Shown here: positions 5,450 to 44,360 of the stretch, in pieces
How the letters are laid out: each line of letters opens with the position of its first letter
Numbering within the stretch: position 1 is the stretch's first letter
Origin: Spirochaetaceae bacterium
Lineage (GTDB): Bacteria; Spirochaetota; Spirochaetia; Treponematales; Breznakiellaceae
NCBI GenBank assembly: GCA_031262035.1
Contig: JAISIL010000049.1
Span: 1-44,360 of the forward strand
Length of the DNA: 44,360 nucleotides
Direction: 5' to 3'
The notes under the pieces: generated by a model
What the model saw: only the letters and a program-made list of their open reading frames with translations
The model's database searches: none
What the model was told of the DNA's origin: nothing
Made by a program: the position numbers and the translations under genes

Positions 5450-5473
5450 AATTTCTCCAATATCGATAAGTCG

Positions 5474-22551: not shown

Positions 22552-22576
22552 GCTCATTTAATAGGAGTATATTTTG

Positions 22577-23821: not shown

Positions 23822-23825
23822 GAAT

Positions 23826-23911: not shown

Positions 23912-23926
23912 ATAAAGGTAATAACT

Positions 23927-25965: not shown

Positions 25966-26010
25966 GGAGTAAGTAGGAAGTAGGAAGTAGGAAGGAGTAA
26001 GTAGGAAGGT
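25963..26010 (+). repeat. GGAAGTA heptamer tandem repeat between permease and outer-membrane channel genes
   Basis: About six AGTAGGA/AGGAGTA units. It starts at the TAA stop of the permease and its last unit (GAAGG) sits 7 nt before the ATG at 26017, so it supplies the ribosome site of the next gene. Same family as 5474-5595. Confidence 0.8.
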
Positions 26011-26016
26011 TGTTGT

Positions 26017-27369
26017 ATGCAGTATAAGATTGTAAAACTATTATTTATTTTGTTTGTTTTGTTTGCGTGGTTCGCGTGGTTTGCGGTTAATCTTCAGGCT
26101 TTGTCGTTGGAGGAAGCTGAGAAGTTGGCGCTGTCTGCGTCGCCGGAGTTGAGGAAATATAATCTTATTGAGGAAAACAATTCACTGAAAGAAAAGGGTG
26201 ATTTATTTAACCGTCTGCCTTCTTTGGGAAGCCTTAGAGTGTCGGGGGAGAGTGATTTGAAGGATACGGTTCAGGGCACGCTTAGTTTGCCTTCATCTAT
26301 TAGTGCGACGCTTTGGGATGGCGGTGTGTATAGTATTACTAAACAGTTAAATGCTATCACATCAGAATCGACCAAGAATTCTGTGTTGCAGGCTTACTAC
26401 GATGTCCTTTCCGGTGTTGCTACATCATACTATGATGTACTGGAGGCACAAACTACTTTAGAAAATGCAAAGGCCGATCTGGAAAATCAGGAAATCAATT
26501 GGGAAAAGGCAGAGGTTCAGTATCAGTCGAAGATGCTTGGGCAAGGCGATTATTTACAAGCAGAATTTGATTACGCTGATGCCAAAACGGCCTTGAATAA
26601 GGCAGGGCGCGATCTGGCTGCGAAAAAAACTGTCTTGCAAAAGCTCCTTGGTCTATCGGAAGACCTGCCTGAATTGTCGGACATCAATTTTGATGCCTAT
26701 ATTGATTTTCTGCAAACACTTGCCGCTTATGACGATGCGGCAATCGCAAGCCTTAAAACAAAGTTGCTTAGTCTGGTCCAAACACGGAATCCGGGCTTTT
26801 TGAATGCAGGCTTGAACTTAAAGCAATCGGAATTAGGCCTTAAGCAGGCACAAACTGGCTATATGCCGAACTTTCAGGCAAGTTTTTCCTTCCCCAGCCC
26901 TTCGGTGAACCTGAACACTACAGATATAAACAATAATTCTGTTCTTCAATGGTCAAAAATGAGTTTAGGCATCTCAGGCAGTATTTCCCTTGATTTTTGG
27001 AAGACGGCAAATTCTGTGGCACGCAGTAAAAATTCCCTTGCACAGCAGCAGATAGACTATCAGAGCACGGTCGACCAACTTGACACAGATGTCTACAATG
27101 CTATAATTAGTTTGATAAACAATGCAACTTCGGTTGTTTCTACGGAAAGAGCCCTGGAAATAAGGCAGATACAGTATGATTCTGCCGAGGCGCTTTACAA
27201 TTTAGGCCAGTATTCCTCGCTTGACCTCTCTGAGGCACGTATTAATTTTAACCAGAGTCAGGCGGCCAGTAATACTGCACGGTATAGCTTTTTAAAACAG
27301 CTTGCAACAATACGGGGCCTTGCTGCTTTTAATACTATGCCTGAATTAGTATCATTTATAAGCAAGTAG
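26017..27369 (+). CDS. TolC-type outer-membrane efflux channel
   Basis: A 450-residue outer-membrane factor. Residues 1-32 are a signal peptide ending near LQA, followed by LSLEEAEKLALSASPELRKY, the usual start of the OEP fold. Two repeats of long helices and strands follow; the second begins around GLNLKQSELGLKQAQTGYMP, with ARSKNSLAQQQIDYQ and the closing EARINFNQSQAASNTARYSF. It forms the outer-membrane duct of the tripartite pump. The hydrophobic core of the signal peptide (AWFAWFAVN, 17-25) is encoded by a copy of the dispersed repeat found at 3258-3283 (23/26 identical). Its ribosome site comes from the preceding heptamer array. Confidence 0.88.
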   Translation: MQYKIVKLLFILFVLFAWFAWFAVNLQALSLEEAEKLALSASPELRKYNLIEENNSLKEKGDLFNRLPSLGSLRVSGESDLKDTVQGTLSLPSSISATLWDGGVYSITKQLNAITSESTKNSVLQAYYDVLSGVATSYYDVLEAQTTLENAKADLENQEINWEKAEVQYQSKMLGQGDYLQAEFDYADAKTALNKAGRDLAAKKTVLQKLLGLSEDLPELSDINFDAYIDFLQTLAAYDDAAIASLKTKLLSLVQTRNPGFLNAGLNLKQSELGLKQAQTGYMPNFQASFSFPSPSVNLNTTDINNNSVLQWSKMSLGISGSISLDFWKTANSVARSKNSLAQQQIDYQSTVDQLDTDVYNAIISLINNATSVVSTERALEIRQIQYDSAEALYNLGQYSSLDLSEARINFNQSQAASNTARYSFLKQLATIRGLAAFNTMPELVSFISK

Positions 27370-27399
27370 CTTGCAGGGAAGTATATAAGGAAGTATACA

Positions 27400-28731
27400 A
27401 TGAATAAAAGGGAAACAAAAACGCTGAAGATTAAAACATTGCCACTGAAGACCTTGTCACTTTTTGTGGCATTGCTTATATGGTTAGTGATACTGGTATT
27501 CATGACCTATATCGGTTGGAGCCTTCGCGATCGTGCCCGTTTAATTACCGCTGGCGAGAACGAGATGTTTTTTAATATCATTCAAATGCAATTCTTCAGA
27601 ATGGACAGCTTTTCCGAGGTAGACGAGCTCCTTGAATCCGAACCGGTGTTTAAAGAACGGATTTTGGGTATTGGTTTATATGATAGCAATCTAAAGGATA
27701 AATACCGTTGGGGCACTGCTCCTCTTACTCTGGACCAGGATAAAATAAATACCGGTAAGAGTGATAAATGGAATCGCTGGACTTCTGCCAATAGCTGGAA
27801 TGGTGCAGTGAAATTTATTGTCCGTCTCGGGCCGCGCCGGAATATTCCTGCTCCTCCTGCTCCTCCTGCTCCCGATTCGCCTCCTTCGCCTCCTCCGGCG
27901 CCTGATTCCAGACAGCAAAGGTTTCAGTTTAGTGATAATTATTTTTATATGGAAGTGGTGCATCCGATTTATCAGCGAACCTTTATTCTGACTACGATAT
28001 TTTTTCCATTTATAGCAATTCTGATGCTTCTTCTGGTTTTATACACACGCCGCCTTTTTCTGCGGAACCATGAGTATAGCGAAAAACTGGAAGCGCAAAA
28101 AAATCTTGTTGTGTTGGGAACTGCTGCGAGCACTCTTGCCCATGAAATCAAGAACCCGCTTTCATCAATACGCTTACAGACAGGTATTCTTGAAAAAACC
28201 TGTCCCGCTGGAAACGATGAGATATCTGCAATAAACGAAGAAATAGACCGGCTTTCCGATATGACCTATAAGGTAAATGATTATCTTCGTGATGCAAAAG
28301 GCAGGCAGGAAGTTATCAATGTTAAAGATTTACTGGAAGAAGTGTCAAGAAAACTGCTTGGCACAAATACTGTGCAGACTACTTGTGATAGTCCTTTAGT
28401 ATACATTGATTGTGAACGCCTTCGCTCGGTTTTGGAAAATATAATTCGAAATGCAATGGAATCGGGCAGCAAGCTTGATGAAGTGAAGGCAGGCATAGAA
28501 AAAATCGATAATAAAATATGTGTCAAAATAGAAGATAGAGGAAAAGGTATAGCCGAAGAAAACCTTTCAAAAATCTTCGACCCCTTCTGGACAAACAAAA
28601 GCAGAGGCACCGGTATCGGCCTTTCTGTGAGTAAACGATTTATTGAAGCGGCAAAGGGGAGTATTGAAATAAAAAACAGGCAAGAAGGCGGAGTAGAAGT
28701 GCTCATTACACTACCGGAGGTAAAAGTATGA
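27400..28731 (+). CDS. Membrane sensor histidine kinase
   Basis: A 443-residue kinase. Membrane helix one is about 20-40 and helix two about 195-218; the periplasmic sensor between them contains a proline-rich run at about 150-172. The catalytic part has H-box LAHEIKNPLSSIR (His248), N-box NIIRNAMESG, and the ATP-binding G motifs DRGKGIAEE, FDPFWTNKS and GTGIGLSVSK. This HisKA/HATPase layout is that of NtrB/ZraS-like kinases that partner sigma-54 activators. Its stop overlaps the regulator's ATG (ATGA). Lying in the efflux operon, it probably senses envelope stress or the pump substrate. Confidence 0.92.
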   Translation: MNKRETKTLKIKTLPLKTLSLFVALLIWLVILVFMTYIGWSLRDRARLITAGENEMFFNIIQMQFFRMDSFSEVDELLESEPVFKERILGIGLYDSNLKDKYRWGTAPLTLDQDKINTGKSDKWNRWTSANSWNGAVKFIVRLGPRRNIPAPPAPPAPDSPPSPPPAPDSRQQRFQFSDNYFYMEVVHPIYQRTFILTTIFFPFIAILMLLLVLYTRRLFLRNHEYSEKLEAQKNLVVLGTAASTLAHEIKNPLSSIRLQTGILEKTCPAGNDEISAINEEIDRLSDMTYKVNDYLRDAKGRQEVINVKDLLEEVSRKLLGTNTVQTTCDSPLVYIDCERLRSVLENIIRNAMESGSKLDEVKAGIEKIDNKICVKIEDRGKGIAEENLSKIFDPFWTNKSRGTGIGLSVSKRFIEAAKGSIEIKNRQEGGVEVLITLPEVKV

Positions 28732-30065
28732 AAATACTAATAGTAGACGATGAAAAACACATACGGGAATCTTTAAAAAAATATCTTTCACTTGATGATA
28801 TAGATTCTGTTACCGCAGAAACCGGTGAAGCGGCAAAGGACCTCCTTGAAAAAGAAGCCTTCGATGCTGCCATCCTCGACCTGCGATTACCCGGTATTTC
28901 AGGCCAGGACCTTCTGCAATGGATGATTGAGCAGGGCTTTCAAATTCCTGTTATTATGATTAGTGCACATGGCCAGATTGAAGACGCAGTGAATGCACTC
29001 AAGGCCGGCGCCCGCGATTATATTGTAAAACCTTTTGACCCCGCAGAACTTATCATCAAACTCCGTTCTATTGTGCAAACACAAAGGCTCGAAAACAAGG
29101 TGCAAACCGAGGAGCGCACAAAACCTGACAGTTTTCTTATTGGCGAAACACCGGTGATGCAGGAGCTGAAAAAACGTATTGGAAAAATTGCCGAAAGCGA
29201 TGTTACCGTTTTAATCACCGGCGAATCAGGTTCGGGAAAGGAAATGGTTGCAAGGGAAATTCATCGTCTCAGTCCTAATTGTGATGAGCCTTTTGCAGCA
29301 GTTAATATCGGTGGTATACATGAGGGCCTTATGGAAAGCGAACTTTTTGGCCATGAAAAGGGAAGTTTCACCGGCGCACAAAACCGTAAACTCGGCCTTT
29401 TTGAAGTAGCCGGCAGGGGCACTATCTTTCTCGATGAAATTGGCGAGACGCCGCTTCCCTTGCAGGTCAAACTTTTGCGTGTTTTGCAGGAACGTAAAAT
29501 CCGCCGCCTGGGAAGCAATGTGGACATTCCGGTGAATGCACGAATTATAAGTGCCACAAACCGTGATCTTGAAAAACAAATTGCCGAGGGCAAGTTCCGT
29601 GAGGACCTTTACTACCGCCTCAATGTGTTTCGCCTTCATTGTCCGCCTCTTTGCGAGCGGCTTAATGATATTCCCCTTTTGTCCGAGCATGTTGTCGGAA
29701 AGCTCTGCCGGCGAATGGGTCGGTCGCTTGTTCACCTCAGCGGAAACGCACTTCTACGCTTACAGTCTTATAATTTCCCGGGAAATATCCGCGAGCTTGA
29801 AAATATTCTTGAGCGGGCGCTTATCTATGGCGACAGAAATATGAATATAATAGAAGAAAATGCGATAGAAATCAGAAATATCCAGCCAAAAGAGCCGGTA
29901 AAGCCTTCTTCTGCATCAGAGACAGTAATAACCATTGATGAACTTGAAAAAAAGGCAATTTTCGAAGCTCTGGAACGCTGTAATAATAACCACAGCCAGG
30001 TAGCCCGTGAACTGGGCATTACCCGAAAAACCCTCTTAAATAAATTAAAAGCATATTTAAAATAA
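28728..30065 (+). CDS. NtrC-family response regulator (sigma-54 activator)
   Basis: A 445-residue regulator. The receiver domain (1-120) has acidic pocket D7/D8, phospho-acceptor D51 in AILDLRLPG and Lys101 in IVKPFDP. The AAA+ domain (about 138-375) has Walker A GESGSGKE (165-172), the sigma-54 contact loop GSFTGA (212-217, Ser for the common Ala) and Walker B GTIFLDEIGE. The C-terminal Fis-type helix-turn-helix ends NNHSQVARELGITRKTLLNKL. It would be phosphorylated by the kinase encoded just upstream and open sigma-54 promoters. The one seen at 22535-22551, at the head of the same operon, is the obvious target. Confidence 0.93.
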   Translation: MKILIVDDEKHIRESLKKYLSLDDIDSVTAETGEAAKDLLEKEAFDAAILDLRLPGISGQDLLQWMIEQGFQIPVIMISAHGQIEDAVNALKAGARDYIVKPFDPAELIIKLRSIVQTQRLENKVQTEERTKPDSFLIGETPVMQELKKRIGKIAESDVTVLITGESGSGKEMVAREIHRLSPNCDEPFAAVNIGGIHEGLMESELFGHEKGSFTGAQNRKLGLFEVAGRGTIFLDEIGETPLPLQVKLLRVLQERKIRRLGSNVDIPVNARIISATNRDLEKQIAEGKFREDLYYRLNVFRLHCPPLCERLNDIPLLSEHVVGKLCRRMGRSLVHLSGNALLRLQSYNFPGNIRELENILERALIYGDRNMNIIEENAIEIRNIQPKEPVKPSSASETVITIDELEKKAIFEALERCNNNHSQVARELGITRKTLLNKLKAYLK

Positions 30066-30128: not shown

Positions 30129-30821
30129 ATGAAGAAATATGTTTATCTCGTTCTCATGGCGCTTGCCGCCGGAATCTTTGCCTATGCGGAGGAAATTCCG
30201 CCGGCAAAGCTTACAGTCCTTTCCGGCTCTGACAATTATACTGTTATTCAGAGCTGGGATAACAGGCCTTTTGTATTGTGTTCTCTTAATGACAGTTTTA
30301 TTGCCTATAATGAGAAGATGGAACTGGTGTATGAAAGTAAAGTTCCCGGGCAAATAAAAGAGATAAGCTCTTTTTCCTATCTTTCCGAAACATACATTGT
30401 CATTAACTACCTTGATAATGAAACACAATCTGATGATTTTTTCTTCCTCAAGCTCGATTATAACTCTAATTTTTTAGAGCTCTCTCAGTATAAGAGTGCT
30501 CAGCATATACAGAAATACTACCCATATATTGAAGATGATGATGAAAGTGTCGGTTTGTATTATATCACTAATGGTAATCTTTACCAGAATGATGAAAAAA
30601 TCAATACAGACAGTGAATATGTTATTGATATAAGCCCTGATGCTTACATTGTAAAAGATGGCTTTCTTGAAAAGAAAATACCCTGTGATATAGCACCGCG
30701 GACACAATATTTTATGAATGAAAAAGAGATGACCTATTTTATAAATAACATCAAATATGCAATAACAACAGATGATGCTGTTGTAACTTTATACAGGATA
30801 GAGGAAGACTATGAAGACTAA
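30129..30821 (+). CDS. Exported protein of unknown function, first gene of the giant-protein operon
   Basis: A 230-residue precursor with signal peptide MKKYVYLVLMALAAGIFAYA. The mature part is beta-rich, acidic and Tyr/Asn/Asp-rich (IQSWDNRPFVLCSLNDSFIA, IVINYLDNETQSDDFFFLKL, YYPYIEDDDESVGLYYITNG), perhaps a partial propeller; I do not recognise a family. Its coding end overlaps the start of the 4306-residue gene by 11 nt, so the two are translationally coupled. Its ribosome site lies in a hairpin, so translation of the whole operon may be gated there. No own promoter is evident in the 63-nt gap after the response regulator, so it could continue the efflux transcript. Confidence 0.75.
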   Translation: MKKYVYLVLMALAAGIFAYAEEIPPAKLTVLSGSDNYTVIQSWDNRPFVLCSLNDSFIAYNEKMELVYESKVPGQIKEISSFSYLSETYIVINYLDNETQSDDFFFLKLDYNSNFLELSQYKSAQHIQKYYPYIEDDDESVGLYYITNGNLYQNDEKINTDSEYVIDISPDAYIVKDGFLEKKIPCDIAPRTQYFMNEKEMTYFINNIKYAITTDDAVVTLYRIEEDYED

Positions 30822-33800
30822 ATATATAATTCTTTTCGTATTGGCCTTGCAGGCGGCTGCCCTTTTTGCCGGTGGAGGCAAAGAAAGTAGCAAGGAAACT
30901 ATTTTTGAGATGGGTTCAATAGATCTATCTATAAGCAATTATAACAGTATGGAAAATGAGGAGTATTCCGGAACGATTTTTTATAATTATTATGCCGGTA
31001 AAGCTAAGATAAAGGCAAACCCCTCTGAGAAAGAAAACCCATTTGTTCGTTATACTATATCCTTATGGGAAAAGGATAATGATGATAAGTATAAGAAAAT
31101 AACTAGTTTTGAAGAAGATAAATACTTTGCGATATCGAATAATACAAGAATACAGATTGAATATAGTATTTATGGTTCTCTTAGTAGTTATCCGGTTAAA
31201 AAATGCGTATATACAATTGATTTTAAAAAAAGTAATAATGAAAATTATACGGAAAGCGAGACTATTGAAAGAGAATTTATACATGCTCGTGCAAGATTCA
31301 AATTTAAGTATAAATTGAAAAGCATTAATATTCCTCAAATAAATACTTCTGACCCAAGTGTCTTTAGTTTTTTTCCGAATCAATTAGAATGGCAAAACAA
31401 TACTTCGAAAAGCCTTTTGCTTAGTAATTCTCAGGGTGGAAAGGTGGTGGTAACAAAAGATAACAATGTAATAGAGGCTTTTACTTATGCAAAGGATACG
31501 AGCCGATTAGTTCCTTTTAGAAAAAAATTATTTGATGGCACCTATAAAGTAGAGATAACTGAAAACGAAATTATCGGCATTGTAGTGAAAGGACAATTTT
31601 GGTTTAGATATGATGCAACAAAACCTAGTTTAATTGTAAATAAACAGGTAAAAAATAACTGGAATAAAAGCGGTAAGATTAATGCTACAGCCTCGGACGG
31701 ATTAAGCGGCGTTAATTCTTCTTCTCTCCGTTATAAAAAGAAACCGGAAAATGCTGCCTGGTCTTCATGGCAGAGAGGTTCGGTGGCTTCATTTCCTGAT
31801 GGTGTAAATCAATATACCTTTGAAGTATATGATAATGCCGGCAATAGAACGGAAGTATCAGGAACAGTCCAGGTAGATACGATAGCGCCCTCTATTCAGG
31901 CAAGTGTTGCCTCTTATGCTGTCTCTGATAAATTAACATTTATTACCAATGCAGGTGATGGTAATTCCGGTATCAGAAATGTATACTATTCACTTAATGA
32001 TAAAGAAAAAATACAATGTGCGAACAATAGCGCTGTTAGTATTTCTGTTAAGGCATTGGCCGAAGGAAATCATACCATAAAATTTTATGCAGAGGATAAT
32101 GCTGGAAATGAAGCGGCAAGTTCAAGTTATACCTTTAAGATTGTTCGAAAACAGCCTAAGATTACTGCAATTCTACAGCAGGATAAACCTATCAGTGAGA
32201 ATGAGTATATATACAGCAATGCACTTCAGTTAAACATCAGTACCGATACTCAAATACAGGATTACTATTGGTATATCACACAGGAAAATAGGAAAGAAGA
32301 TTTTTCAAAGGCAAACAGAACAAAGGCCGCTACTATTACTGTATCCAATATAAAACATGGCCTGACTTATCTTATAATAAAGGCAATAGATATATATGGC
32401 AACGAAAGTAATATCATAAAAAGAAAGATACTACGCGATGCCTATATCCCCGGCCTGCCTCTTATAAAAAGCCCGACACACAAACAGTGTTCTACTGCCG
32501 ATGAAGCAGTATCAAATACAAAGGCAGAATTTGTCTTCAAACCTGCAATTAATGTTTACTCTGGTGTGGCTGCATATCGCTGGAAGCTTTACAAAGGCAA
32601 TTCTGTTTATAAAGAGGGCCGTATAGATACACTTGATGGTAGTCAGAGTGGCTCCCTTGAATTTGTCTTACCGGATAATCAGGCAAACGAATACTATATA
32701 TTGAATGCCGCTTGTATAGCAGGAAATAAAACAACAGGACAGGATGCAAGCTATAAGTTCAGAATTGATACCGACCCTCCAAAAGGACTGCGTATTGATA
32801 TTAACCCGCATACCGATTCTGCCAATTGGTATAATGAGGTGTATGCAAAACTGACATGGAATATTCCGAAAGATATGACCGGAGTAGAAAAATATGCCTA
32901 TTGTGTCAGTGAAACAAGCAATAGCAATAATCTGCAATGGATATACCTGAAAGAAAGGGAAGCAAATATTTCATTGGAAAGTTTTATCTTGAATAAAACA
33001 AAGAACACAGTCTTTATACATGTAGCCTGTTTTGACAATGCAGGTAATTCCATGCAGGCAGTGCGAAAAATAAACCTGGATATAGCGAAACCTCAGTTTA
33101 TTGATAAAAAAGCGCCTGCAATAACAGCCTTGACAGGCGGAAATGCAATCAGCCTTAATTGGGGACGAACAAAAGACAATGAAACATCTGTCGAAGAAAT
33201 ACTTGTCAAGATAATTAACATGAACACTAATGAAGTGATTAATGCAATAAGCCTTGAACCTTCAAAACAAGACTATACTATAGATAATCTCCCCGAAAAA
33301 GCTGCTATGACTATCTATGTAGAATGTATCGATGCTGCCGGTAATCGTAACAGTATCTATGATTTTTATGCAACAGGCGGCGCAGTTATTCCTGCAAGTT
33401 ATTCCCTGCCTTATAGCGAAAGCATTAATGGTTTTTACCTTGAAGGAAGTGAAAAACGGGACACTAAAACAAAAGCCCTCTTATCCTATCAGGATTTGGA
33501 GATAAAACTGCCGCAAACCATTGCTGTTCCGAAAAAACGATATAAAATTGCATCTGCCCAAATACATAATGGTCAGTTATTGGAAGCAATTAGCTCCCCC
33601 GAAGACATACAACTCGAAGCACTTGGGTTTACCCTAAAAGGAAGGGCCTTTCGGTTTAACCGCTTCGACGGCCTTTATCTGAATGATGCATTGTATAAAA
33701 ATGCTGTCAATATAGGCAGTGTCCATTTAGGTTCACCTGAACACATGTCCTTTAGCAGTGAAAAAACAACCTTAAGCACTAGTAAAACAGTTCATTGCGA

Positions 33801-36800
33801 TAATGGCCTCAGTATAGAACAGGTTGAATGGCTCTACCTGGACGGTCAATATGAATACTTTGGCGGCAACAATAGTATTATCAGCAATTATAATCTTCCT
33901 GTTGCAAATGCAAGAATTGACAGCAGCAATGCCAATATTTCAGGTGATATTAAAACAAGCCCGCAGAAACCGGCTGTTTTAAAAATGCAGAACATTGATT
34001 ATCATATACTAAAGGCTGATTTTAAAGACAATTACATTAATATACAAAAAGCCTATGTTCTTTTAAGTAAAGAATTTGATACAGAAAAACTCTTCCTCGA
34101 AAATTTTACTATTGATACAAGAGACGGGAAGATACTCTGTGAAGATGACTTCAAGGTAAATAATACCCTTGCGCAAACAAAGGGTAATGTAAAAATAAAA
34201 ACACTTTCTTTTTACTTTGATGAGGACGGCCGCCTGAAAGCTTCAACAGAAATAGACCTGGGTGTTTATGGCATATATCAGAAAGATGATATTATCTTTA
34301 GTGCCGATACCATAGACTATGCTTCCAATATTATAAGCCTTCCCAATGAAATTACTGTGCATGGTTTTCAGATGCTTGTCGAAAAAGCATATTTTTCGCC
34401 AAAAGGCTTGCATATACTGACAGGAAAGATACAGGTATTCAATAGATATTTCGCTTTTGCAGACCTTGGTATTGAAATAAACGAAAGAGACAAAATTTAC
34501 CAGGAAGGCCGTATTACAACATCAATTCGGGAAGACACAGGCTATGGAGCTGAGTATCAATTTATAAACGGCAGGATAAACAAGGCCAATGTAAATTTTG
34601 ATATAAAAGTTCCCTTGTCGCAGACTATACAAGATAGCAACGGGAATAAATTTTGGGAATTTAAGAATGCAATATTAAATAGCAATTATACAATTCACCA
34701 TGCAAAAATCAATAATAAAGAAATCAGTATAGGTTCATACAATATACAGGCAGAAAATATCAGCCTGGACAATACTGCAATGAGTATCGAAAAACTGAAT
34801 TCTATTAAGTTGCCTGATGTCAGCAATTCGGTAATTAGTTTTGACAATCTAAGATGCAATTATACCACAGTGCTTCAGGATGCAAAATACAATGGCAGTG
34901 CTGATTTTGAACTTGCCTCATGGAAAATATCATTTAAAAACCTGCTCTTGGACGAAAAAGGTGTTGGTGGTGAAGCAAGCCTGAGATTGCCCGAAAACCT
35001 TGGTGGACATGATATTATGTTCTCCGATTTAAGAATCGACGGCAATTCGACTATACACAGCGGTTCTTTAAGTGAAAATAACGATATTATTCTCTACTAC
35101 AATATTCCTGTCAAAATGAAATTCGGAAGGCTCATTCATAGTGCTACAGGCTATAATCTTGTTTCTGAAGCCCCTGAGGTAATACACGAAAACACTGTCC
35201 TCTTTAGTCTTGGGAAAACTGCTTTTGATACAGCAGGTAATTTGAAAGAATCATTTGCAGGGCAGGGCTCGGCACGCTTTGTATCAAGCAATAATTATTT
35301 TGTTGATTCCGATGCTGCCTGTTTAAAAGATGGCGCTGCCCTGATTAAAGGAAAAATAGGCTCAAAACACTGGGAAAAGAGCAAAAAGAATGCGGTTTCT
35401 TCTGAAAATATTTATTATTCCGTAGGAAACAGAGTAAAAACTAATACGCTGAAAGATAAATCAATAGAGTATTCGTATAATGGATGGGAGCTTAGCGGTA
35501 GCGATGTAGAGTTTTCCCATAACAGGACTAGTATATACAGTAACACTGTTCAATTGAATGGGAAAACTATTGATATAGGCAAGGCAGAGTATACAAGTGA
35601 TGGCATCTTATTTGAAACTGCAATACAAAACCAAAATGTCAAGCTTACCTTACCATCCGGCTTACCTGCAACCATCACAGAAACACGCTGGAAAGAAGAT
35701 GGCCTTTATGCAAGTATGATGATTGGAATACCGAGCTGGTTAGAAGGAACCTATCTCTATTTTGAGAATGTGTTACTAAAAAGCGATGGCAGTATTGATT
35801 GCCTCAGTGAGGTGAAAAATTATTCTTTTGCCTATGGTGAATTTTCATTTAATGCAGAAGGTATAAGGCTGAACAATGCAGGTTTGCAGATAGAACAGTC
35901 GGAAATTATTCTCCCCGCCGCTTTATCACATGCAGCAATCAGTGTTTCTGCACTACAGATAAGTAATACTGGTATAGTAATAGAAAGTGGCCAGGTTGCT
36001 CCTTTTGCACTTCTTGGTTTAACTTTATGGTTAGACAGTATAGCAGTAAATAATGACAGGTTCAGTTTTGAAGGCGGTATTCGTCTTCCTGACGAAACGC
36101 CCGGTGTATTATCACGAAAAATTATTCAAATTGATGAATTCAGTATCGGCACAAATGGACAGGACTTAAAATTAATTGCCAAACTGAATCGTGAATACTA
36201 TCTTCCCTTAATTGGCGCCTTTGCAATGAATGTGCAGGACCTTGTTGTTGAAATTACTGACAATGCAAGCCGGATTACAATGGCAAAAGGCGAATTGCTT
36301 TTACCTTCAAGTTATGGACAAACAAGCGCTACTATTAGTGATGTCCGTTACAATATAAAAGAAAAGAAGTTTGATTTTAGCGAAATAAAAGTAACAAGCG
36401 ATATTGTTCTCAATTTTAGCGGATTAAAATTTGCAATGAATATGCTTCGATTTAACAGTAATGGTGATATTTCATTTGATGGATTTGTACACTTTCCCAA
36501 GGAAAATATTCCGCCCTTCCTTGCTGGTAGAATTTGCCGTATAGATACATTTGAAATTCTTAGCGACGGCAGTTTGGGCAATCTGTCTATTCATTTAAAT
36601 AATCTTGAAGGCTCTCTTTCCAGTAATAATAACAATGCAATACTACGAAATGGTAATCTTGATATTAGTAAAGAAAAGGATATGTTACTTAAACTTTCAA
36701 TAAAAGGCGATATAGAATTATCATCTGATATGCCCGATGACCTTAAAGGTTTAAGGCTGGCAATCAATGAATTTATCTTTGACATTGAAAACAAGAAAAT

Positions 36801-39800
36801 AAAGAGCCTTGATGCATCATTAAGTAAAAACAGCCACAGTATATCCAATATGGAGATAAAGAATTTATTTTTGGGCCTGCAATATCAGGAAAGTAAAAAC
36901 GACATGATTGTTTCAGTGCGTGGCGGCCTTATCTTTCCCTCGAATTTTCCGGACTTCCTTGCCGGTCAGACAGTAGAACTCCGCCGCTTCGAGATTAGTG
37001 TCAATAAAGGTATACAAGCCCTCGATGCAAAGTATGAATTACCAAAGAATATTCCCTACACGCTAACCGGCGATATTATGATTAAGAATGCTGTGCTTGC
37101 CGCTGTTTGGCGTAATAACAGAGTAGAGTTCGAAGCAGACGGTCTTTTGTATATTCCAAAAGATACATTGATTAGCGGAGTAGGGGAATTATCATCAAAG
37201 ATTAGACTCCGGCTTAATTCTCTTGAAGGGCTGAGTGAGCTGTATTTTGATACAATTTTAAAAGACAGTCGTATATATGATACCTTTATAACGAGGGGAA
37301 TTAAGTTCTGTATCGATAAAAAAGAAAAGAAACCATTACTCATTTCACTTAAAGGTGACCTTGAGGTAGCACAAGATAGAATATCATTTATTGATAAGAA
37401 TTTGAAATTTAAAGTCAATTCATTCACTATTGATGAATACGGCAATATTAAGCAATTCGATGTCAGATTGAACAAAGTAGATATGACTCTTTTTGGGCAA
37501 GTGGCAATTAAAGATGCAAACCTTGTAGCACGCAGGTATAAAACTGATGACTTTATCATCGCTATAGACGGAAGGCTTGGCCTTGTATCAGAATTATTGC
37601 CCGAAACAGTCCGAAATTCTGAATTTGTTATCAAAAAGTGTGAAATATCCACCAAGAGAGGACTGTTGAATTTTGATGCCGGCTTAATTACCGCCGTCAA
37701 GTTTTCTATATTTACTGATATATCAGTAAATATAAACGCACTCAGTATATCTTCAAAGCAGTTTACGATAGACGGCAGTATTACTTTGCCGGACTTTTTC
37801 CCTGATGGCCTGAAAGGGCGCACAATCAGTTTACAGAATTTTGCAATGGACTGGAAAGGTATCATCCTTGATATGCAGGGTGCTATTGACCGGAGCAATT
37901 TTGATTTCTATGGCTTTAAAGGCTATTTCGAAGATCTCTTTATCGGGAGAAATGAAAGCGGAAAATTTGTCTTCAAAATGAAAAACTGCGATATAACACT
38001 GCCTTCCAGTCTTAAGATAAAAGGCTCAAATAAAGTAGGTATAAAAAATGCATTCCTTTATTTGGATTCCGGTAAAATTGCCGGGCAATTTATGGCAGGA
38101 ATGATACCGGTAGATATTGCCGGTTTTACCCTGGAACTTATTGGTCCCTATATTGATGACAAGAATTATGCGATAGGTTTTGCAAAAGCGACACTAAAAT
38201 CGCCTGAAATACTCAAAACGGCAAGTGTTTCACTGAATGAAGTATCAATTTCAGCAAAAAATGGCCTGCAAGTTCAAGGTGGAGAATTCCTTCTGCCGGC
38301 ATTTACTATGGGCACGCTTACATTCTACAATGTCCGTGTTGGATTCCTTATGCAAAGTGATAATTACGAAATTAGTGGTAGTGGTAGTGTTATATTACCA
38401 GGTGCAGGAAGTGTGTATGCTGATGTATCATTTACCAATGTGTCAGATTTGTATCCTATCGGTTTACAGCGGGCGATATTTACCTATACTATTTGGCCTG
38501 GTATTCTTCTTGGTGGAACAGGCTTAAGGCTTAATGCCATAAGAGGTAGTATAGCCTACGGACCGCCGAATGAAGTGCCCGAGAAAGTGCAGGGAATGTT
38601 CAGTAATGCCGGCCCCCGAATATCATTGGGTTTAGGCCTGGTCGATGCCGGTGGTGGAAATATTATTACAATGGTTCCCTCTGTATGGGTTGATTTACAC
38701 AATGGCACCTGGGCTCTGGACGGTAAAGCCATTGTTCTAAAAGGTGTTCTTGATTTGGAAGCAGAGGCTTTGGCATCAGTCGGCAAGATGGGCTTCTATG
38801 CGGGAATGGATTTTAAACTAAAGTTTGTTAAAGGCGGCCTTGAGTTCTATATCTTCGATAAAAATGAAAAGGTATTGATTTCCGGCGAAGGCCGTGTTCA
38901 ATTTGGTATTTCAAGAGGTTCTATTGTCAATAAAAAAGTATTGGGTATAAGAATCGTTATTCCCAGGAATGAATTATGGCTTCCAAGAATTGGTGCAGAG
39001 TTTGGCGCTTTCAAAAATGGAAAATCAGGTTTTAAAGGTTTTGTTCGGGTGCCTATACTGGGTGATATTGGTGTGTTTGTCGGTGGCGGAAGTCTGAAGC
39101 TGGGAAATGTATCAAGCTATAAGATTGAAAAACCCACCTGGGCAAGAAGCTTGCTGCTTAGTCAAAATACTGTTCTCGATGAAGATACAAATATGATGAA
39201 TCTTGATTCTTATGGAGACGACAAAGACTATGAAAAAGAATACCCGGTGTATATCAGTAAGAGCCTTGACCGTGCAATATTTGTGTTGGCACATATTGAT
39301 GGTGAACCGCAGATTGAAGTGCAAACAGCTTCCGGTAAGACATATCGTGCAGGCGATGAGAATACCGAACTGAGTATTATGGACGGTATCTATGCACTGA
39401 CTGTATATGAAAATGACCCTGGCCTCTGGAAGGTTAAGGTCAGCAATATTCGTGAAGATAAGTATGCTTTAAGCATCATGGGTGTTGCAGAAAACCCTAT
39501 AGTTATCTTTGATAATTTGCACAGTGATATAAATGCACAGAATACAAATGTAAATATTGCCGGCCGGACAAACTATAGCAATATTGCTGTGCATCTTTTT
39601 GCAAGTAACGATGATGGCATCTTGTGGATACCCTTGGGAAGCGCCTTTGCAGATGACGCAGGTGAATTTAGTTTTAGTTTGCAAACTGATGAATTAAGTG
39701 ACGGCAAGTGGGCTATTGCCGCCGAACTTGATGAAAAAGATGAATTATTGTCCGACAAGTATCGTGCAGAGGGTAAAATCATACTGGATAGAAAGAATAT

Positions 39801-42800
39801 CCCTCTGCGTGCCCTTGAAAAGGTCTATATTGCAGAAAATGATGGCGAAATGACCCTTTTTTGGGAAAATAACAATGGCAGCCGCACAAAAGGTTACAAT
39901 GTTATGCTGGAAAATCTTTCTACAAAACAAAAGGATATACTGTATGTAGGCAATATCACTCAATTACGTATCCCCGGTTGGACAAAGGGTGATGAAATAA
40001 AAGCAAGTGTTGCAAGCCTTGACGAATATGACAGTGTTAGTAGCTATACCAGCGCTCCGCTTATTTCTGTTGGCTCTGAAAAAGCGAGTGTTAATATACC
40101 TGTTCTTTTAAATAAAGTTACCAAGATAAAAATGAATACCGGAACTGTTTATCAGGGAATCTTGCCTGCACAAATTGACCACTATCAGAATACCGGCGAT
40201 GCTGCAATGTATTTATTTGCAAGAGAAACTGCAAAGGACAATGATGCAGTCAGGCTTTTATTTGACAATGAGATAAAGGTTGTATCTTCTCAGTGCGATA
40301 TTCCTTTTACTGTTAGTTTAAGTGATGATATAGCACCCGGACTGTATACACAGGAATATGAGGTATACAATATTGCCAACAATACTGTAAAAGAGATTTC
40401 TACAATCGAAATAGAAGTTTCGTATCCTGCACCGCTTATAGAAAGCATTGAACCAGCCTTCATAAACATTTCAGAAGAAAGAATGATTAGCATTATTGGT
40501 AGAGGCTTCAGCAAAGGTATTCGTGTCTTATGTAATTATAGTGAATTACCCATTGAAAAGAATTCTACCTCCTCTGTGCTGAATGTGCTCTTGCCTGAAA
40601 ACCTTGAAGCTGGAGAACAGAGCATCATTGTAGAAAATGCAAGCGGAGACAAGGCCCATTCGACTGTCCTTGTTACAAGGCCTGATTGGTCAGCCCGCTT
40701 CTATACCTCCTTCGCCGAACTGAATCCCGGTGGGCAGATTGAGATACCTGTTGAGATTGTCCCCGTGGAAGGCTTTAATGGTATTGTCAATTTCTCCGTC
40801 CTGAATGCCCCTGCCTTTATACAGATGAATATTCCTTCTATACAGGCAGGCGAAAGTGCATTTATCACAATATCTGCTTCAAAAGAGGCAAAGACAGGGA
40901 CATATCCCCTTAGTATTACCAATGCTAATGGCCGTTCCTTTGAGTTTATCGTTCAAATTAGTGCAGAAAAATTGCTTCCACGTATTTCAAGCCTTTCAAA
41001 CGATATAGGCAGAGTAGGGGACAAAATAGAAATTTACGGAAATAATTTTACTGAACAAGGCGAACTCAGCTTGAATGGAAGCGCTCTTTCCTATGAACAG
41101 TGGAGCGATTCTAAAATCACCTTCACAATACCACAGGGTAGTAAAACCGGTATGCTGCAAATTCAGAATGAGGCCGGTCTTAGTAATGCAACACAATTGA
41201 TTGTTAAAGAGATGTGGTCGCTAAAAGTACAAGATGATTATCTCCCTTTTGATAGTGGTGAAAGTAAAGAAATTAGCCTCTACCTAAATGGAAGTGATAC
41301 TGAAACAATCGAAATTGCACTTGAAAAAAATAATACATTGCCCTTTGATATAAGTCTTGACAAAACAAGTACCAAAGCGCCTTCGCGGATTCTCCTGTCT
41401 ATAAAAGCAAGGGAGAGTGCCGAAGCAGGAATGTATTCACTGGCGCTGAATGCTTTTAGTGCTGCACAAAATACCCTTAAGCAAAGTCTGATTATCACAC
41501 TGGAAGTAATCAACTCTTTTGAGATTACAACAGATTATCTGGACGAAGGCCGCATCGGCAGGCCCTATTTTGCGGAACTTGATTGCAAAAACAATAAAAC
41601 CGATGCTACTTACTCCATTGCTAGTGGCAGTTTGCCTAAAGGAATTGTTCTTAGTGCCAATGGCATAGTGAGTGGGATTCCGGAAACATCCGGTCTCTTT
41701 CATTTTACTGTGCTTGCACTTGATGGCAGTAAAAAGGCATTCAAAGAATTCGATTTAACTATAGTAGATGATATATGGCTGGGTAAAAATGATGATAGCC
41801 TCTCTTTAAGCAGAGTTCCTGCACGGGAACATATTTTGTTTCAATACAAAACTGACAGCACAATACTTGATATATTTGCACTAGCCGATACCATTGTTCT
41901 GCACAGCGAAAATGCTATTAGTGCATTGAATTACAAAGGGGAACTACTCTGGAATTGTGCCGGTAATTATAGGCAAATAGCCTACCGGAATAACAAAATC
42001 TACCTCTATTCAGACAATAATGTCTTGAAAGTGCGTGATATTCATTCAGGTTATCTTATCTGGAAAAGAGAAGGCATCTATGCAATGAAACTCATTAATG
42101 ACAGGCTTTACCTGAAAACAAATAAATACAATCTTGTGGTGCATGCAGACTCAGGCCATTTACTTCAGCAAATTGATGACTTCGACTATGGTAGTAATAC
42201 TACATTCTCAGATACCAAGCAAGAAATATTTGCCTTCGAAAAATCTGTTTCAATAGAAGATAATAAACTGCTTGTGCGAAATTTGTATACAGCTAATACC
42301 ATTTGGGAAAAAGAAGGAAGCTGGACTCAGCTTGCCCTGTATAATGGTAATCTGCTTGCTTCAGAACAGGACACCCTGACCGTATTCCATGGTCCTGATA
42401 ATGAAACCGGCCCCATAAGCAGTATTCGCATTGTTAAGGGCCAAAAAAACAAGAATAATTGGTATACCGAGGCGGTAAAAATCAAGATTGAAAGTTACGA
42501 CATCGAAAGCTACAGCAAAAAACCTGAAGTGTTTATAAACAATATACGCCTTAACGATGATATCGAAACCATTGAACTGAGTGAAAACGGTGTGTATACT
42601 ATTGCTGCCTTCGCAGTGGATAACCATGGCATGCAGGGAAACACCGTCAGGCAAACAATCAAGATTGATAGGGAAATACCCCAAAGTAAGGCAGATATCT
42701 CAGGCCCTCTAGGGAAGAATAATTGGTATACCGGCCCGGTAAGCATTGGCATTCATGCCGAGGATGCAGTCTCCGGTATTGATACCATAGACACAAACTA

Positions 42801-43731
42801 TGGCCAATATACCGGTCCTATTATGCTGAACGAACAGGGTATACATCAATTTAGCTGGCATGCAGTCGATAAGGCCGGTAACAAAGAACAATGGCAGAGC
42901 ATCTTTCTCAATATTGATTATGAAACCCCTTGGACAAATGCAGAAATAAGCAATGAAAATGGCTACAGCATTATTGAATTAAACTCCAGTGATGCTCTTT
43001 CAGGCCTTGCTCAAATTGAATACTATATAGACAATGCCCGTATACAAACCTACAGTGAAACGCTTGTTATAGAAGAAGCAGGCAATCATAAAATCTACTA
43101 CCGTGCAATCGACAATGCCGGCAACACCGAAAGGTGGAAGTGTATGGACTTCAATGTCAGGCAGAAGATGTCGGCCAAGGCAATTGTTGAAAACCTTATT
43201 ATTGATGGCCAGGAATCAGTTTCTCTGCCTTATACAAAGGGCGGCTTTAAAAACATGCCCTCCTATTGTATAGGCGCCGAATATTTTATCGCCAAAACTG
43301 CATCCTTTAGCGTCAGGAAAGATGCTGTTGTGTATATGCTTATCGACAATGAAATACAAATGAAGCGCCTTTTTGCCGGTGATACTATGAAAATAACCGA
43401 GGCAGATAAAACGGCAAGCATATTTGTTCAGGAAATAAAACCACTGCTTGCCACAATCACTGTAGACAGAAAAGCTGATACATTGCAATTTGATGCACTG
43501 ATAGAACCCTGGAAATACTCGAGAAGATTGCCATTAAAAGAACATTGGTATGTCGAAATTGACGGGAACAAGCTTGAAGTAAGCGGCAAGGTATTCCCCT
43601 TACCTGTAGAGATAAAAGACAATCGCAATAAGGCCATCAAAGTGCTCTATGAGTTGATTGCTCTCGATGGAAACATTGAATATAAGACTGAAAAATATAT
43701 TTTTATAGGAGATTTACATGAAAAGAATTAA
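30811..43731 (+). CDS. Giant exported multidomain protein with about 72-residue central repeats
   Basis: 4306 residues, uninterrupted. Signal peptide 1-20, then AGGGKESS. Residues about 265-860: Ig/FN3-like domains with A-x-D-x-A-G-N closings (Asp341, 429, 527, 742, 841). About 867-2770: a large beta-rich region; from about 1756 to 2395 its units start like G-x-I-x-L-P-x-x-F-P-x-x-L-x-G (markers at 1756, 1828, 1892, 1967, 2039, 2111, 2183, 2255, 2323, 2394; steps 64-75, mostly 72). Then an FN3-like domain (about 2999-3089), IPT/TIG-like domains (about 3208-3290 and 3389-3467), a He_PIG-like Ig domain (about 3570-3655), a PQQ-propeller-like stretch (about 3656-3877), OmpL47-like Ig repeats (about 3877-4119) and a unique C-terminal tail. 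No sortase, autotransporter or barrel anchor is seen. Function unknown: adhesin, surface layer or envelope-spanning groove protein are options. Confidence 0.85.
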   Translation: MKTKYIILFVLALQAAALFAGGGKESSKETIFEMGSIDLSISNYNSMENEEYSGTIFYNYYAGKAKIKANPSEKENPFVRYTISLWEKDNDDKYKKITSFEEDKYFAISNNTRIQIEYSIYGSLSSYPVKKCVYTIDFKKSNNENYTESETIEREFIHARARFKFKYKLKSINIPQINTSDPSVFSFFPNQLEWQNNTSKSLLLSNSQGGKVVVTKDNNVIEAFTYAKDTSRLVPFRKKLFDGTYKVEITENEIIGIVVKGQFWFRYDATKPSLIVNKQVKNNWNKSGKINATASDGLSGVNSSSLRYKKKPENAAWSSWQRGSVASFPDGVNQYTFEVYDNAGNRTEVSGTVQVDTIAPSIQASVASYAVSDKLTFITNAGDGNSGIRNVYYSLNDKEKIQCANNSAVSISVKALAEGNHTIKFYAEDNAGNEAASSSYTFKIVRKQPKITAILQQDKPISENEYIYSNALQLNISTDTQIQDYYWYITQENRKEDFSKANRTKAATITVSNIKHGLTYLIIKAIDIYGNESNIIKRKILRDAYIPGLPLIKSPTHKQCSTADEAVSNTKAEFVFKPAINVYSGVAAYRWKLYKGNSVYKEGRIDTLDGSQSGSLEFVLPDNQANEYYILNAACIAGNKTTGQDASYKFRIDTDPPKGLRIDINPHTDSANWYNEVYAKLTWNIPKDMTGVEKYAYCVSETSNSNNLQWIYLKEREANISLESFILNKTKNTVFIHVACFDNAGNSMQAVRKINLDIAKPQFIDKKAPAITALTGGNAISLNWGRTKDNETSVEEILVKIINMNTNEVINAISLEPSKQDYTIDNLPEKAAMTIYVECIDAAGNRNSIYDFYATGGAVIPASYSLPYSESINGFYLEGSEKRDTKTKALLSYQDLEIKLPQTIAVPKKRYKIASAQIHNGQLLEAISSPEDIQLEALGFTLKGRAFRFNRFDGLYLNDALYKNAVNIGSVHLGSPEHMSFSSEKTTLSTSKTVHCDNGLSIEQVEWLYLDGQYEYFGGNNSIISNYNLPVANARIDSSNANISGDIKTSPQKPAVLKMQNIDYHILKADFKDNYINIQKAYVLLSKEFDTEKLFLENFTIDTRDGKILCEDDFKVNNTLAQTKGNVKIKTLSFYFDEDGRLKASTEIDLGVYGIYQKDDIIFSADTIDYASNIISLPNEITVHGFQMLVEKAYFSPKGLHILTGKIQVFNRYFAFADLGIEINERDKIYQEGRITTSIREDTGYGAEYQFINGRINKANVNFDIKVPLSQTIQDSNGNKFWEFKNAILNSNYTIHHAKINNKEISIGSYNIQAENISLDNTAMSIEKLNSIKLPDVSNSVISFDNLRCNYTTVLQDAKYNGSADFELASWKISFKNLLLDEKGVGGEASLRLPENLGGHDIMFSDLRIDGNSTIHSGSLSENNDIILYYNIPVKMKFGRLIHSATGYNLVSEAPEVIHENTVLFSLGKTAFDTAGNLKESFAGQGSARFVSSNNYFVDSDAACLKDGAALIKGKIGSKHWEKSKKNAVSSENIYYSVGNRVKTNTLKDKSIEYSYNGWELSGSDVEFSHNRTSIYSNTVQLNGKTIDIGKAEYTSDGILFETAIQNQNVKLTLPSGLPATITETRWKEDGLYASMMIGIPSWLEGTYLYFENVLLKSDGSIDCLSEVKNYSFAYGEFSFNAEGIRLNNAGLQIEQSEIILPAALSHAAISVSALQISNTGIVIESGQVAPFALLGLTLWLDSIAVNNDRFSFEGGIRLPDETPGVLSRKIIQIDEFSIGTNGQDLKLIAKLNREYYLPLIGAFAMNVQDLVVEITDNASRITMAKGELLLPSSYGQTSATISDVRYNIKEKKFDFSEIKVTSDIVLNFSGLKFAMNMLRFNSNGDISFDGFVHFPKENIPPFLAGRICRIDTFEILSDGSLGNLSIHLNNLEGSLSSNNNNAILRNGNLDISKEKDMLLKLSIKGDIELSSDMPDDLKGLRLAINEFIFDIENKKIKSLDASLSKNSHSISNMEIKNLFLGLQYQESKNDMIVSVRGGLIFPSNFPDFLAGQTVELRRFEISVNKGIQALDAKYELPKNIPYTLTGDIMIKNAVLAAVWRNNRVEFEADGLLYIPKDTLISGVGELSSKIRLRLNSLEGLSELYFDTILKDSRIYDTFITRGIKFCIDKKEKKPLLISLKGDLEVAQDRISFIDKNLKFKVNSFTIDEYGNIKQFDVRLNKVDMTLFGQVAIKDANLVARRYKTDDFIIAIDGRLGLVSELLPETVRNSEFVIKKCEISTKRGLLNFDAGLITAVKFSIFTDISVNINALSISSKQFTIDGSITLPDFFPDGLKGRTISLQNFAMDWKGIILDMQGAIDRSNFDFYGFKGYFEDLFIGRNESGKFVFKMKNCDITLPSSLKIKGSNKVGIKNAFLYLDSGKIAGQFMAGMIPVDIAGFTLELIGPYIDDKNYAIGFAKATLKSPEILKTASVSLNEVSISAKNGLQVQGGEFLLPAFTMGTLTFYNVRVGFLMQSDNYEISGSGSVILPGAGSVYADVSFTNVSDLYPIGLQRAIFTYTIWPGILLGGTGLRLNAIRGSIAYGPPNEVPEKVQGMFSNAGPRISLGLGLVDAGGGNIITMVPSVWVDLHNGTWALDGKAIVLKGVLDLEAEALASVGKMGFYAGMDFKLKFVKGGLEFYIFDKNEKVLISGEGRVQFGISRGSIVNKKVLGIRIVIPRNELWLPRIGAEFGAFKNGKSGFKGFVRVPILGDIGVFVGGGSLKLGNVSSYKIEKPTWARSLLLSQNTVLDEDTNMMNLDSYGDDKDYEKEYPVYISKSLDRAIFVLAHIDGEPQIEVQTASGKTYRAGDENTELSIMDGIYALTVYENDPGLWKVKVSNIREDKYALSIMGVAENPIVIFDNLHSDINAQNTNVNIAGRTNYSNIAVHLFASNDDGILWIPLGSAFADDAGEFSFSLQTDELSDGKWAIAAELDEKDELLSDKYRAEGKIILDRKNIPLRALEKVYIAENDGEMTLFWENNNGSRTKGYNVMLENLSTKQKDILYVGNITQLRIPGWTKGDEIKASVASLDEYDSVSSYTSAPLISVGSEKASVNIPVLLNKVTKIKMNTGTVYQGILPAQIDHYQNTGDAAMYLFARETAKDNDAVRLLFDNEIKVVSSQCDIPFTVSLSDDIAPGLYTQEYEVYNIANNTVKEISTIEIEVSYPAPLIESIEPAFINISEERMISIIGRGFSKGIRVLCNYSELPIEKNSTSSVLNVLLPENLEAGEQSIIVENASGDKAHSTVLVTRPDWSARFYTSFAELNPGGQIEIPVEIVPVEGFNGIVNFSVLNAPAFIQMNIPSIQAGESAFITISASKEAKTGTYPLSITNANGRSFEFIVQISAEKLLPRISSLSNDIGRVGDKIEIYGNNFTEQGELSLNGSALSYEQWSDSKITFTIPQGSKTGMLQIQNEAGLSNATQLIVKEMWSLKVQDDYLPFDSGESKEISLYLNGSDTETIEIALEKNNTLPFDISLDKTSTKAPSRILLSIKARESAEAGMYSLALNAFSAAQNTLKQSLIITLEVINSFEITTDYLDEGRIGRPYFAELDCKNNKTDATYSIASGSLPKGIVLSANGIVSGIPETSGLFHFTVLALDGSKKAFKEFDLTIVDDIWLGKNDDSLSLSRVPAREHILFQYKTDSTILDIFALADTIVLHSENAISALNYKGELLWNCAGNYRQIAYRNNKIYLYSDNNVLKVRDIHSGYLIWKREGIYAMKLINDRLYLKTNKYNLVVHADSGHLLQQIDDFDYGSNTTFSDTKQEIFAFEKSVSIEDNKLLVRNLYTANTIWEKEGSWTQLALYNGNLLASEQDTLTVFHGPDNETGPISSIRIVKGQKNKNNWYTEAVKIKIESYDIESYSKKPEVFINNIRLNDDIETIELSENGVYTIAAFAVDNHGMQGNTVRQTIKIDREIPQSKADISGPLGKNNWYTGPVSIGIHAEDAVSGIDTIDTNYGQYTGPIMLNEQGIHQFSWHAVDKAGNKEQWQSIFLNIDYETPWTNAEISNENGYSIIELNSSDALSGLAQIEYYIDNARIQTYSETLVIEEAGNHKIYYRAIDNAGNTERWKCMDFNVRQKMSAKAIVENLIIDGQESVSLPYTKGGFKNMPSYCIGAEYFIAKTASFSVRKDAVVYMLIDNEIQMKRLFAGDTMKITEADKTASIFVQEIKPLLATITVDRKADTLQFDALIEPWKYSRRLPLKEHWYVEIDGNKLEVSGKVFPLPVEIKDNRNKAIKVLYELIALDGNIEYKTEKYIFIGDLHEKN

Positions 43732-44360
43732 GATTCTAACACTGGCGCTTGGTATTCTATTTTCTTTACACACTGCAGTTTTTGCAGACAAGAATTATAG
43801 AATAGTCCTTGAAAAAGGCGACTACTATCTGAGGTTCCCCGGGTATAGTAGCTGTGATTATGAGGTCAGCGATGCTATGGGAAATTACTACCACTGGGAT
43901 AGTGTAACAAGACTGTATAAAAAGGGAAGGGCGCTTGCTGTCCTTGACCTTCTGAAAAAATCCGGCAGTATTAATCTTAGCGGTGAAAGACTTGCTATTC
44001 CCTTGCCCAACAGAAATAATTTTGTGTCTCAGACTCAAGATGAACTCAGATTACAGCTCACCCTATGGACAGCGGATAAAAATGATATACGAAACATCAT
44101 GGGAACAAAACTGAGTATCAATCATACTATTGAATGGTGGCCTGGTGAATCAGCATTTTTCAATTTAGTTAGAACAACAAACAGCAGTGATAAGGATAAA
44201 ATAATGAGTATGCTCTATGCCTATTTCAATGATAAAGGCGAAGGGGTAAATTTTCAGAATATGATAAGTGCAGAGTATTCCGAGGCCAATAACATTCATC
44301 TTTTTGATACTATTGATGCTGAAAAAAAGAAAAAGGCGCTCGATTCCCTGGCCGATATGC
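43718..44360 (+). CDS. Exported protein, cut by the right edge
   Basis: An open frame of 214 codons to the window end. It begins MKRIKILTLALGILFSLHTA and VFA, a clear signal peptide; the mature part (DKNYRIVLEKGDYYLRFPGY, IEWWPGESAFFNLV) is beta-rich and not recognised. AGGAGA lies 7 nt upstream, inside the end of the giant gene, and the coding regions overlap by 14 nt in different frames, so it is translationally coupled to it. As third exported product of the same operon it may assemble with the giant protein. The size beyond 214 residues is unknown. Confidence 0.8.
   Translation, partial: MKRIKILTLALGILFSLHTAVFADKNYRIVLEKGDYYLRFPGYSSCDYEVSDAMGNYYHWDSVTRLYKKGRALAVLDLLKKSGSINLSGERLAIPLPNRNNFVSQTQDELRLQLTLWTADKNDIRNIMGTKLSINHTIEWWPGESAFFNLVRTTNSSDKDKIMSMLYAYFNDKGEGVNFQNMISAEYSEANNIHLFDTIDAEKKKKALDSLADM

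What the first reader, a model, noticed from the sequence alone, without database searches (positions are those of the whole stretch)
36073..38010. About 72-residue degenerate tandem repeats inside a 4306-residue protein
Markers of the form G-x-I-x-L-P-x-x-F-P-x-x-L-x-G recur at residues 1756, 1828, 1892, 1967, 2039, 2111, 2183, 2255, 2323 and 2394, mostly 72 apart, with low identity between units. I recognise no family. The regular beta pattern could build a long solenoid or a groove like TamB/AsmA-type lipid-transfer proteins, which would be new for an exported giant protein in a spirochaete. Related units probably extend outward to about 867-2770.
Basis: partly seen in the sequence, partly recalled or inferred. 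Interest (0 to 1): 0.75.

Follow-up and report, generated by a model that had tools for sequence, protein, structure and literature searches.

The report
Giant spirochaete beta-repeat envelope protein family
Some termite-gut, rumen and related spirochaetes carry a secreted protein of 4,000-6,500 residues whose middle third is an undescribed, length-constant array of about 72-residue all-beta units that may form a long lipid-binding groove, though that function is inferred, not shown.

Summary
The ORF at 30811-43731 (+) encodes a 4306-aa protein with a signal peptide and a true array of degenerate ~72-aa repeats. Unit profiles match each other in register and never match control slices. A unit HMM gives 0 hits in shuffled sequences. 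Related units extend N-terminally to ~860; extension past ~2440 is not established. Colinear homologues (4,100-6,440 aa) occur sporadically across class Spirochaetia. The array keeps its length to 1-2% at ~30% identity, while the flanks vary by 11-16%. AlphaFold2 (pLDDT 74-79) gives one repeating A-B-C-D four-strand meander per unit, with no separate globular domains visible at secondary-structure level. Strand amphipathicity matches YhdP/YdbH/TamB. Fold matches are weak but lean to single-sheet or groove structures: LptD, ApoB100, chorein/VPS13-like, OspA, with RHS shells as the rival. After the array comes the most conserved part (2440-2775), an ~18-strand amphipathic meander. No Pfam or NCBIfam family covers array or module. 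It is not TamB (the genome has its own) and not an RBG protein (4 strands per unit, not 5). Best reading: a new giant envelope beta-belt that works like an AsmA/VPS13-type groove. Fold class is fairly likely; lipid transfer is unproven (~0.4).

The parts
30129..30821 (+). Upstream secreted protein (230 aa), overlaps the giant gene by 11 bp; a secreted gene sits immediately upstream of the giant gene in the homologous loci inspected too (370-580 aa, look beta-propeller-like by eye)
   Evidence: The f1 copies are homologous to each other; the window's own short copy has no phmmer match to them, so for the window this is position only.
30811..43731 (+). Giant secreted protein, 4306 aa
   Evidence: colinear homologues
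30811..30870 (+). Signal peptide (residues 1-~20), no lipobox Cys
   Evidence: sequence; most homologues with an intact 5' end start the same way; no signal-peptide program was run
31648..33360 (+). N-terminal Ig-like region (residues ~280-850)
   Evidence: Big_13 389-444, Big_3_2 297-356; length varies between homologues
33388..36015 (+). N-terminal part of the repeat array (residues 860-1735), more degenerate units
   Evidence: hhalign to the main array probability 98.7, E 1.7e-16; AF2 pLDDT 79, all beta; length CV 1.9%
36061..38346 (+). Main repeat array (residues 1751-2512), 11 units of ~72 aa; includes the reported interval 36073-38010
   Evidence: four strands A-B-C-D per unit in the AF2 model; length CV 1.1%
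38128..39135 (+). Most conserved module (residues 2440-2775): ~18 amphipathic strands, meander; motif YPIGLKRAxFxY...GGxAYGPPDEVP; its first ~70 residues overlap the last HMM unit
   Evidence: conservation 42-47% per block; VIA matches to OM barrels Z 8-10 but rmsd mostly 9-18 A; face statistics
39136..41880 (+). C-terminal Ig-like/TIG/He_PIG domains (residues 2776-3690)
   Evidence: TIG 3208-3283, He_PIG 3594-3651; NF058597
41881..42480 (+). Propeller-like stretch (residues ~3691-3890)
   Evidence: by eye only
42508..43170 (+). OmpL47-type domains (residues ~3900-4120)
   Evidence: NF047446 E 2.2e-47, four stretches in the protein, best 4055-4116
43718..44359 (+). Downstream secreted protein, cut by the contig end; homologues ~1,100 aa end with D-C-x-G ... 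G-D ... H motifs of NlpC/P60 kind
   Evidence: no Pfam model confirms the peptidase reading

Best explanation
A secreted giant envelope protein whose middle ~1,600 residues form one long antiparallel beta meander: about 20 degenerate ~72-residue units, each of four strands (A-B-C-D) followed by a Pro-rich loop (LPxxFPxxLxG) that, because the strand number is even, always lies on the same edge of the sheet. One face of the sheet is hydrophobic. The array ends in a strongly conserved ~335-residue amphipathic meander and is held between variable Ig-like, TIG and OmpL47-type domains. Shown: the repeats, the shared predicted secondary-structure unit, the amphipathic strand pattern of the main array, the fixed array length and the conserved gene order. 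Inferred: export by the signal peptide (read by eye), and that the sheet curls into a belt or groove that binds acyl chains or another hydrophobic ligand, as in AsmA-type proteins, VPS13, the LptD taco or ApoB, and spans part of the spirochaete envelope, with the Ig-like ends and the co-encoded secreted proteins docking it. About 80-97 strands at ~4.8 A would give a belt of roughly 40 nm if it is fully extended (inference).
For: Repeats and their N-terminal extension. Ten units with the same A-B-C-D order and similar offsets in the model; second model all beta, pLDDT 79. Array length varies 1.1-1.9% among homologues of ~30% identity while flanks vary 11-16%, unlike adhesin repeats that gain and lose copies, and as expected for a part that must span or close. 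Amphipathic ratio over local shuffles: main array 1.22, YhdP 1.26, YdbH 1.26, spirochaete TamB 1.24, versus 1.07-1.17 for this protein's own Ig-like parts. Fold matches: LptD (E 6e-5), ApoB100 (E 7e-5, probability 0.93), chorein-domain proteins of mimivirus and Tupanvirus (E 2e-3 and 6.5e-3), TamAB 9xdd (E 0.42), LptC in 6mit (E 0.40), OspA single-layer sheet; the LptD taco superposes on residues 1664-1818 over 130 residues at 4.6 A, Z 5.2.
Against: pTM only 0.38-0.40, so the global shape (open belt, tube, shell) is unknown; coordinates could not be inspected. All fold matches have TM about 0.1 and may only mean 'long antiparallel meander'; RHS shells (teneurin E 1.4e-6) score as well. The N-terminal half of the array is only weakly amphipathic (ratio 1.07) and the C-terminal Ig/TIG part (1.17) is close to the main array. 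No sequence homology to AsmA/TamB seen (though the test was underpowered). No inner-membrane anchor beside the array. Sporadic presence (about 3-6% of genomes) argues against an essential lipid bridge.
Confidence: 0.42

Rival explanations
1. Surface or periplasmic scaffold/adhesin: the array is a rigid beta rod that displays the Ig-like, TIG and propeller domains, with no lipid cargo.
For: Ig-like, TIG, He_PIG and OmpL47-type domains on both sides; sporadic, accessory distribution; neighbours look like a secreted propeller and a cell-wall enzyme.
Against: Array units are degenerate and their number does not change between homologues; strands carry a hydrophobic face of AsmA-like strength, unusual for an exposed single sheet.
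Confidence: 0.3
2. Closed beta shell of the RHS/teneurin/ABC-toxin kind that encloses a cargo.
For: Teneurin-3 is the best Foldseek hit of the N-terminal model (E 1.4e-6) and the Rhs effector Tse15 is fourth (E 1.2e-4).
Against: No RHS/YD-repeat family hit in this protein or its homologue slices; strands of 10-16 residues and ~72-residue units instead of ~20-residue YD repeats (RHS unit size from general knowledge); TM 0.06.
Confidence: 0.12
3. LptD-like conduit: the array is a periplasmic taco and module 2440-2775 is an outer-membrane barrel into which it opens.
For: VIA matches of 2438-2766 are nearly all OM barrels (OprD/Occ, LptD, ushers, VDAC; Z 8-10); strand faces differ by 2.17 against 1.16 +/- 0.22 in shuffles; LptD tops the Foldseek list; no LptD (PF04453) found in this genome.
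Against: rmsd mostly 9-18 A, so no closed barrel is shown; aromatic share of the hydrophobic face is 16%, AsmA-like, not the 24-30% of FhuA/FadL/LptD barrels; 1,500 further residues follow the module.
Confidence: 0.12

Closest known systems
AsmA-like proteins TamB / YhdP / YdbH
   Same: Long all-beta envelope protein, degenerate repeats, amphipathic strands of similar strength; weak fold match to TamAB
   Different: Three to five times longer; ~850 aa of other sequence before the array; no PF04357 domain; own genome already has a TamB, which is near-universal in relatives (36/40) while the giant is sporadic
RBG bridge-like lipid transfer proteins (VPS13, ATG2)
   Same: Tandem beta-meander units ending in a loop; chorein-domain viral proteins among fold matches
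   Different: Four strands per ~72 aa rather than five strands plus a loop (RBG definition: PMC12066543); no chorein family hit
LptD (periplasmic taco + barrel)
   Same: Best Foldseek hits; 130-residue local match to the taco; a following amphipathic meander
   Different: No PF04453 match; no shown barrel closure
OmpL47-type domain proteins of spirochaetes
   Same: Domain NF047446 in the terminal parts
   Different: Does not cover the array or the module

Membership tests
AsmA/TamB family | TamB C-terminal domain (PF04357) | tested here: not met
   No hit in this protein or the homologue slices scanned, while spirochaete TamBs hit at about 1e-7 to 1e-19
AsmA/TamB family | N-terminal membrane anchor leading directly into the groove | tested here: not met
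   Signal-peptide-like helix, then Ig-like domains to ~850 before the array begins; anchor definition from PMC10900882
AsmA/TamB family | Profile homology to TamB/YhdP/YdbH | tested here: inconclusive
   Probabilities 0.1-1.7%, but the positive control (spirochaete TamB vs E. coli TamB) gave only 3.5%
AsmA/TamB family | Amphipathic beta strands along the whole array | tested here: inconclusive
   Main array as strong as YhdP/YdbH, N-terminal half weak
AsmA/TamB and RBG | Open hydrophobic groove that carries lipid | not testable with these tools
   No coordinates, low pTM
RBG superfamily (VPS13/ATG2) | Five strands plus loop per unit | tested here: not met
   Four strands per unit in the predicted model; definition PMC12066543
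LptD | PF04453 barrel domain | tested here: not met
   No hit
LptD / outer-membrane barrels | Closed transmembrane barrel in 2440-2775 | tested here: inconclusive
   Z 8-10 but rmsd mostly 9-18 A
RHS/teneurin shells | RHS/YD repeats | tested here: not met
   No RHS family hit
OmpL47-type domain proteins | NF047446 domain | tested here: met
   E 2.2e-47, flanks only

The most novel reading that the evidence does not exclude
An independently evolved class of bridge-like hydrophobic conduit: a four-strand-unit beta groove about 40 nm long, built into one giant secreted protein together with a terminal amphipathic module and surface-type Ig domains, in spirochaetes that already have TamB.
Probability: 0.2. 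Interest if true: 0.85.

Novelty: new variant of a known kind. Interest (0 to 1): 0.55.

Why it matters
It defines a protein family with an undescribed repeat and module, in gut and other spirochaetes, at a size where function is usually guessed at. If the groove reading holds, it adds a second, non-TamB beta-bridge with a different unit (four strands) and would make convergent evolution of lipid bridges testable. The constant array length is a direct, checkable constraint that ordinary adhesin repeats lack.

Tried and rejected
Ungapped autocorrelation for the period: no clear peak at 72, replaced by profile HMMs. Phages and plasmids by tblastn: no match. IMG/VR scan: nothing. PDB by sequence profile: nothing. 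Profile comparison with TamB, YhdP, YdbH and LptD: no signal, but underpowered. DUF945 (E 0.027 in 2 of 10 members) is below any cut-off and was dropped. SMI1/KNR4 hit in the downstream protein (E 9e-4, no stretch passing alone) treated as spurious. NlpC/P60 reading of the downstream protein rests on a motif only. Other phyla could not be sampled with a whole-genome handle; the GTDB-wide pattern scan returned only spirochaetes, but its pattern was narrow. VIA lists cover about 2438-2766 and 1487-1990 only, so absence of other folds there means little.

Full report
Observation. The ORF at 30811-43731 encodes 4306 residues with a signal-peptide-like start. Profiles of single units taken from an alignment of giant homologues match each other with hhalign (89% of R-R pairs over probability 50; non-adjacent in-register pairs at E 1e-19), whereas none of 190 unit-control pairs does. 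A unit HMM (consensus LISFSGSLILPSKFPGGLAGKSLAIKNFEIDTDGGIKDFDAGLSLPDIFTLFGGLELSLGSLSI) finds 11 units at 1751-2512, one further weak match at 1388-1415, and nothing in 51 shuffled sequences. Residues 850-1720 are a more degenerate extension of the same array (probability 98.7, E 1.7e-16). The stretch after 2440 is related only doubtfully.

Relatives. A search of 394 genomes of the order found matches in 24 genomes and 12 genera, some of them only small relatives; the giants among them are 4,100-5,200 aa where complete. The family sample gave 10 of 200 genomes, and the phylum sample 12 of 393, adding further families of the class. One ORF reaches 6440 aa. Named records are Treponema, Spirochaetaceae and Spirochaetales MAGs. 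A tree of the array and module largely follows families, with exceptions (one f1 copy groups with f20, one f3 copy with f1), which suggests old inheritance with frequent loss and perhaps some transfer. Some genomes carry two copies (G129, G672; G682). Shorter secreted proteins of ~670-880 aa carry a few recognisable units.

Length constraint. Between 13 full-length giants the main array measures 695-720 residues (CV 1.1%), the N-terminal part 875-943 (1.9%), the module 334-350 (1.3%), but the N-terminal flank 860-1467 (15.6%) and the C-terminal flank 1125-1782 (10.8%; a few of these ends are cut by contig ends, so this last figure is an upper bound). At about 30% identity this means that no unit has been gained or lost.

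Structure. AlphaFold2 on 1636-2800 (10 sequences) gave pLDDT 73.5, pTM 0.38, and for the ten successive units the same order: strand A starting ~15 residues after the marker Gly, then B and C (up to 16-17 residues), and D ending at the next marker (my tabulation; units 2, 9 and 10 have broken strands). AlphaFold2 on 850-1990 gave pLDDT 79.2, pTM 0.40, again all beta. Foldseek: LptD, ApoB100, teneurin, Rhs, OspA, and in the viral library two chorein-domain proteins, all with TM near 0.1. VIA: module 2438-2766 against OM barrels Z 8-10, rmsd mostly 9-18 A; residues 1664-1818 against the LptD taco, 130 residues, 4.6 A, Z 5.2, which is inside the range the tool calls common for unrelated folds.

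Amphipathicity. Observed over locally shuffled alternation: main array 1.22, module 1.26, N-terminal array 1.07, Ig regions 1.07 and 1.17; YhdP 1.26, YdbH 1.26, E. coli TamB 1.42, spirochaete TamB 1.24, FhuA 1.18, FadL 1.38. Aromatics on the hydrophobic face: array 15%, module 16%, AsmA-like 9-15%, barrels 24-30%. This fits a groove better than a membrane barrel for the module, without deciding it. Using the strands of the model instead of sliding windows, the module is clearly two-faced (2.17 versus 1.16 +/- 0.22 in shuffles) and the array only modestly so (1.39 versus 1.11 +/- 0.14).

Context. A secreted gene lies immediately upstream of the giant in the homologous loci read, and a ~1,100-aa secreted protein downstream in several loci of three families, homologous to the gene cut by the window's end. 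The latter carries D-C-(I/S)-G and later G-D...H in the three copies read to their end. The genome encodes a separate TamB and no PF04453 LptD was found.

Verdict. The repeats are genuine, old and length-constrained, in a family without a library model. The groove idea is the best single reading but rests on fold class and strand pattern, not on a demonstrated trough or lipid.

Noticed in passing
5473-5512, 5564-5595, 25964-26009: Intergenic GGAAGKA heptamer repeats, at 5.5 kb as an inverted pair ~50 nt apart; the 26-base form occurs at about 16 places genome-wide and its backwards control at none. Looks like a dispersed repeat element of this genome.
   Followed up: partly
1058-1216: 59-bp tandem repeat, 2.7 copies, just beside tRNA-Gly(tcc) at 970-1043.
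   Followed up: no
22574-30065: MacA-MacB-TolC-like efflux genes followed by a sensor kinase and an NtrC-type regulator directly upstream of the giant operon; not looked for as a conserved neighbourhood elsewhere.
   Followed up: no
L049, L050, L052, L053, L054, L056, L057: Shorter secreted relatives (about 670-880 aa) with a few recognisable units; L053 has a propeller-like gene just upstream.
   Followed up: partly
L040 (G386:C1:1954000-1973900): The giant gene is split over four ORFs in an otherwise single-contig genome, so it is either decaying there or hit by sequencing errors.
   Followed up: no
L065: Homologous ORF of 6440 aa in a Spirochaetales MAG, the longest seen.
   Followed up: no
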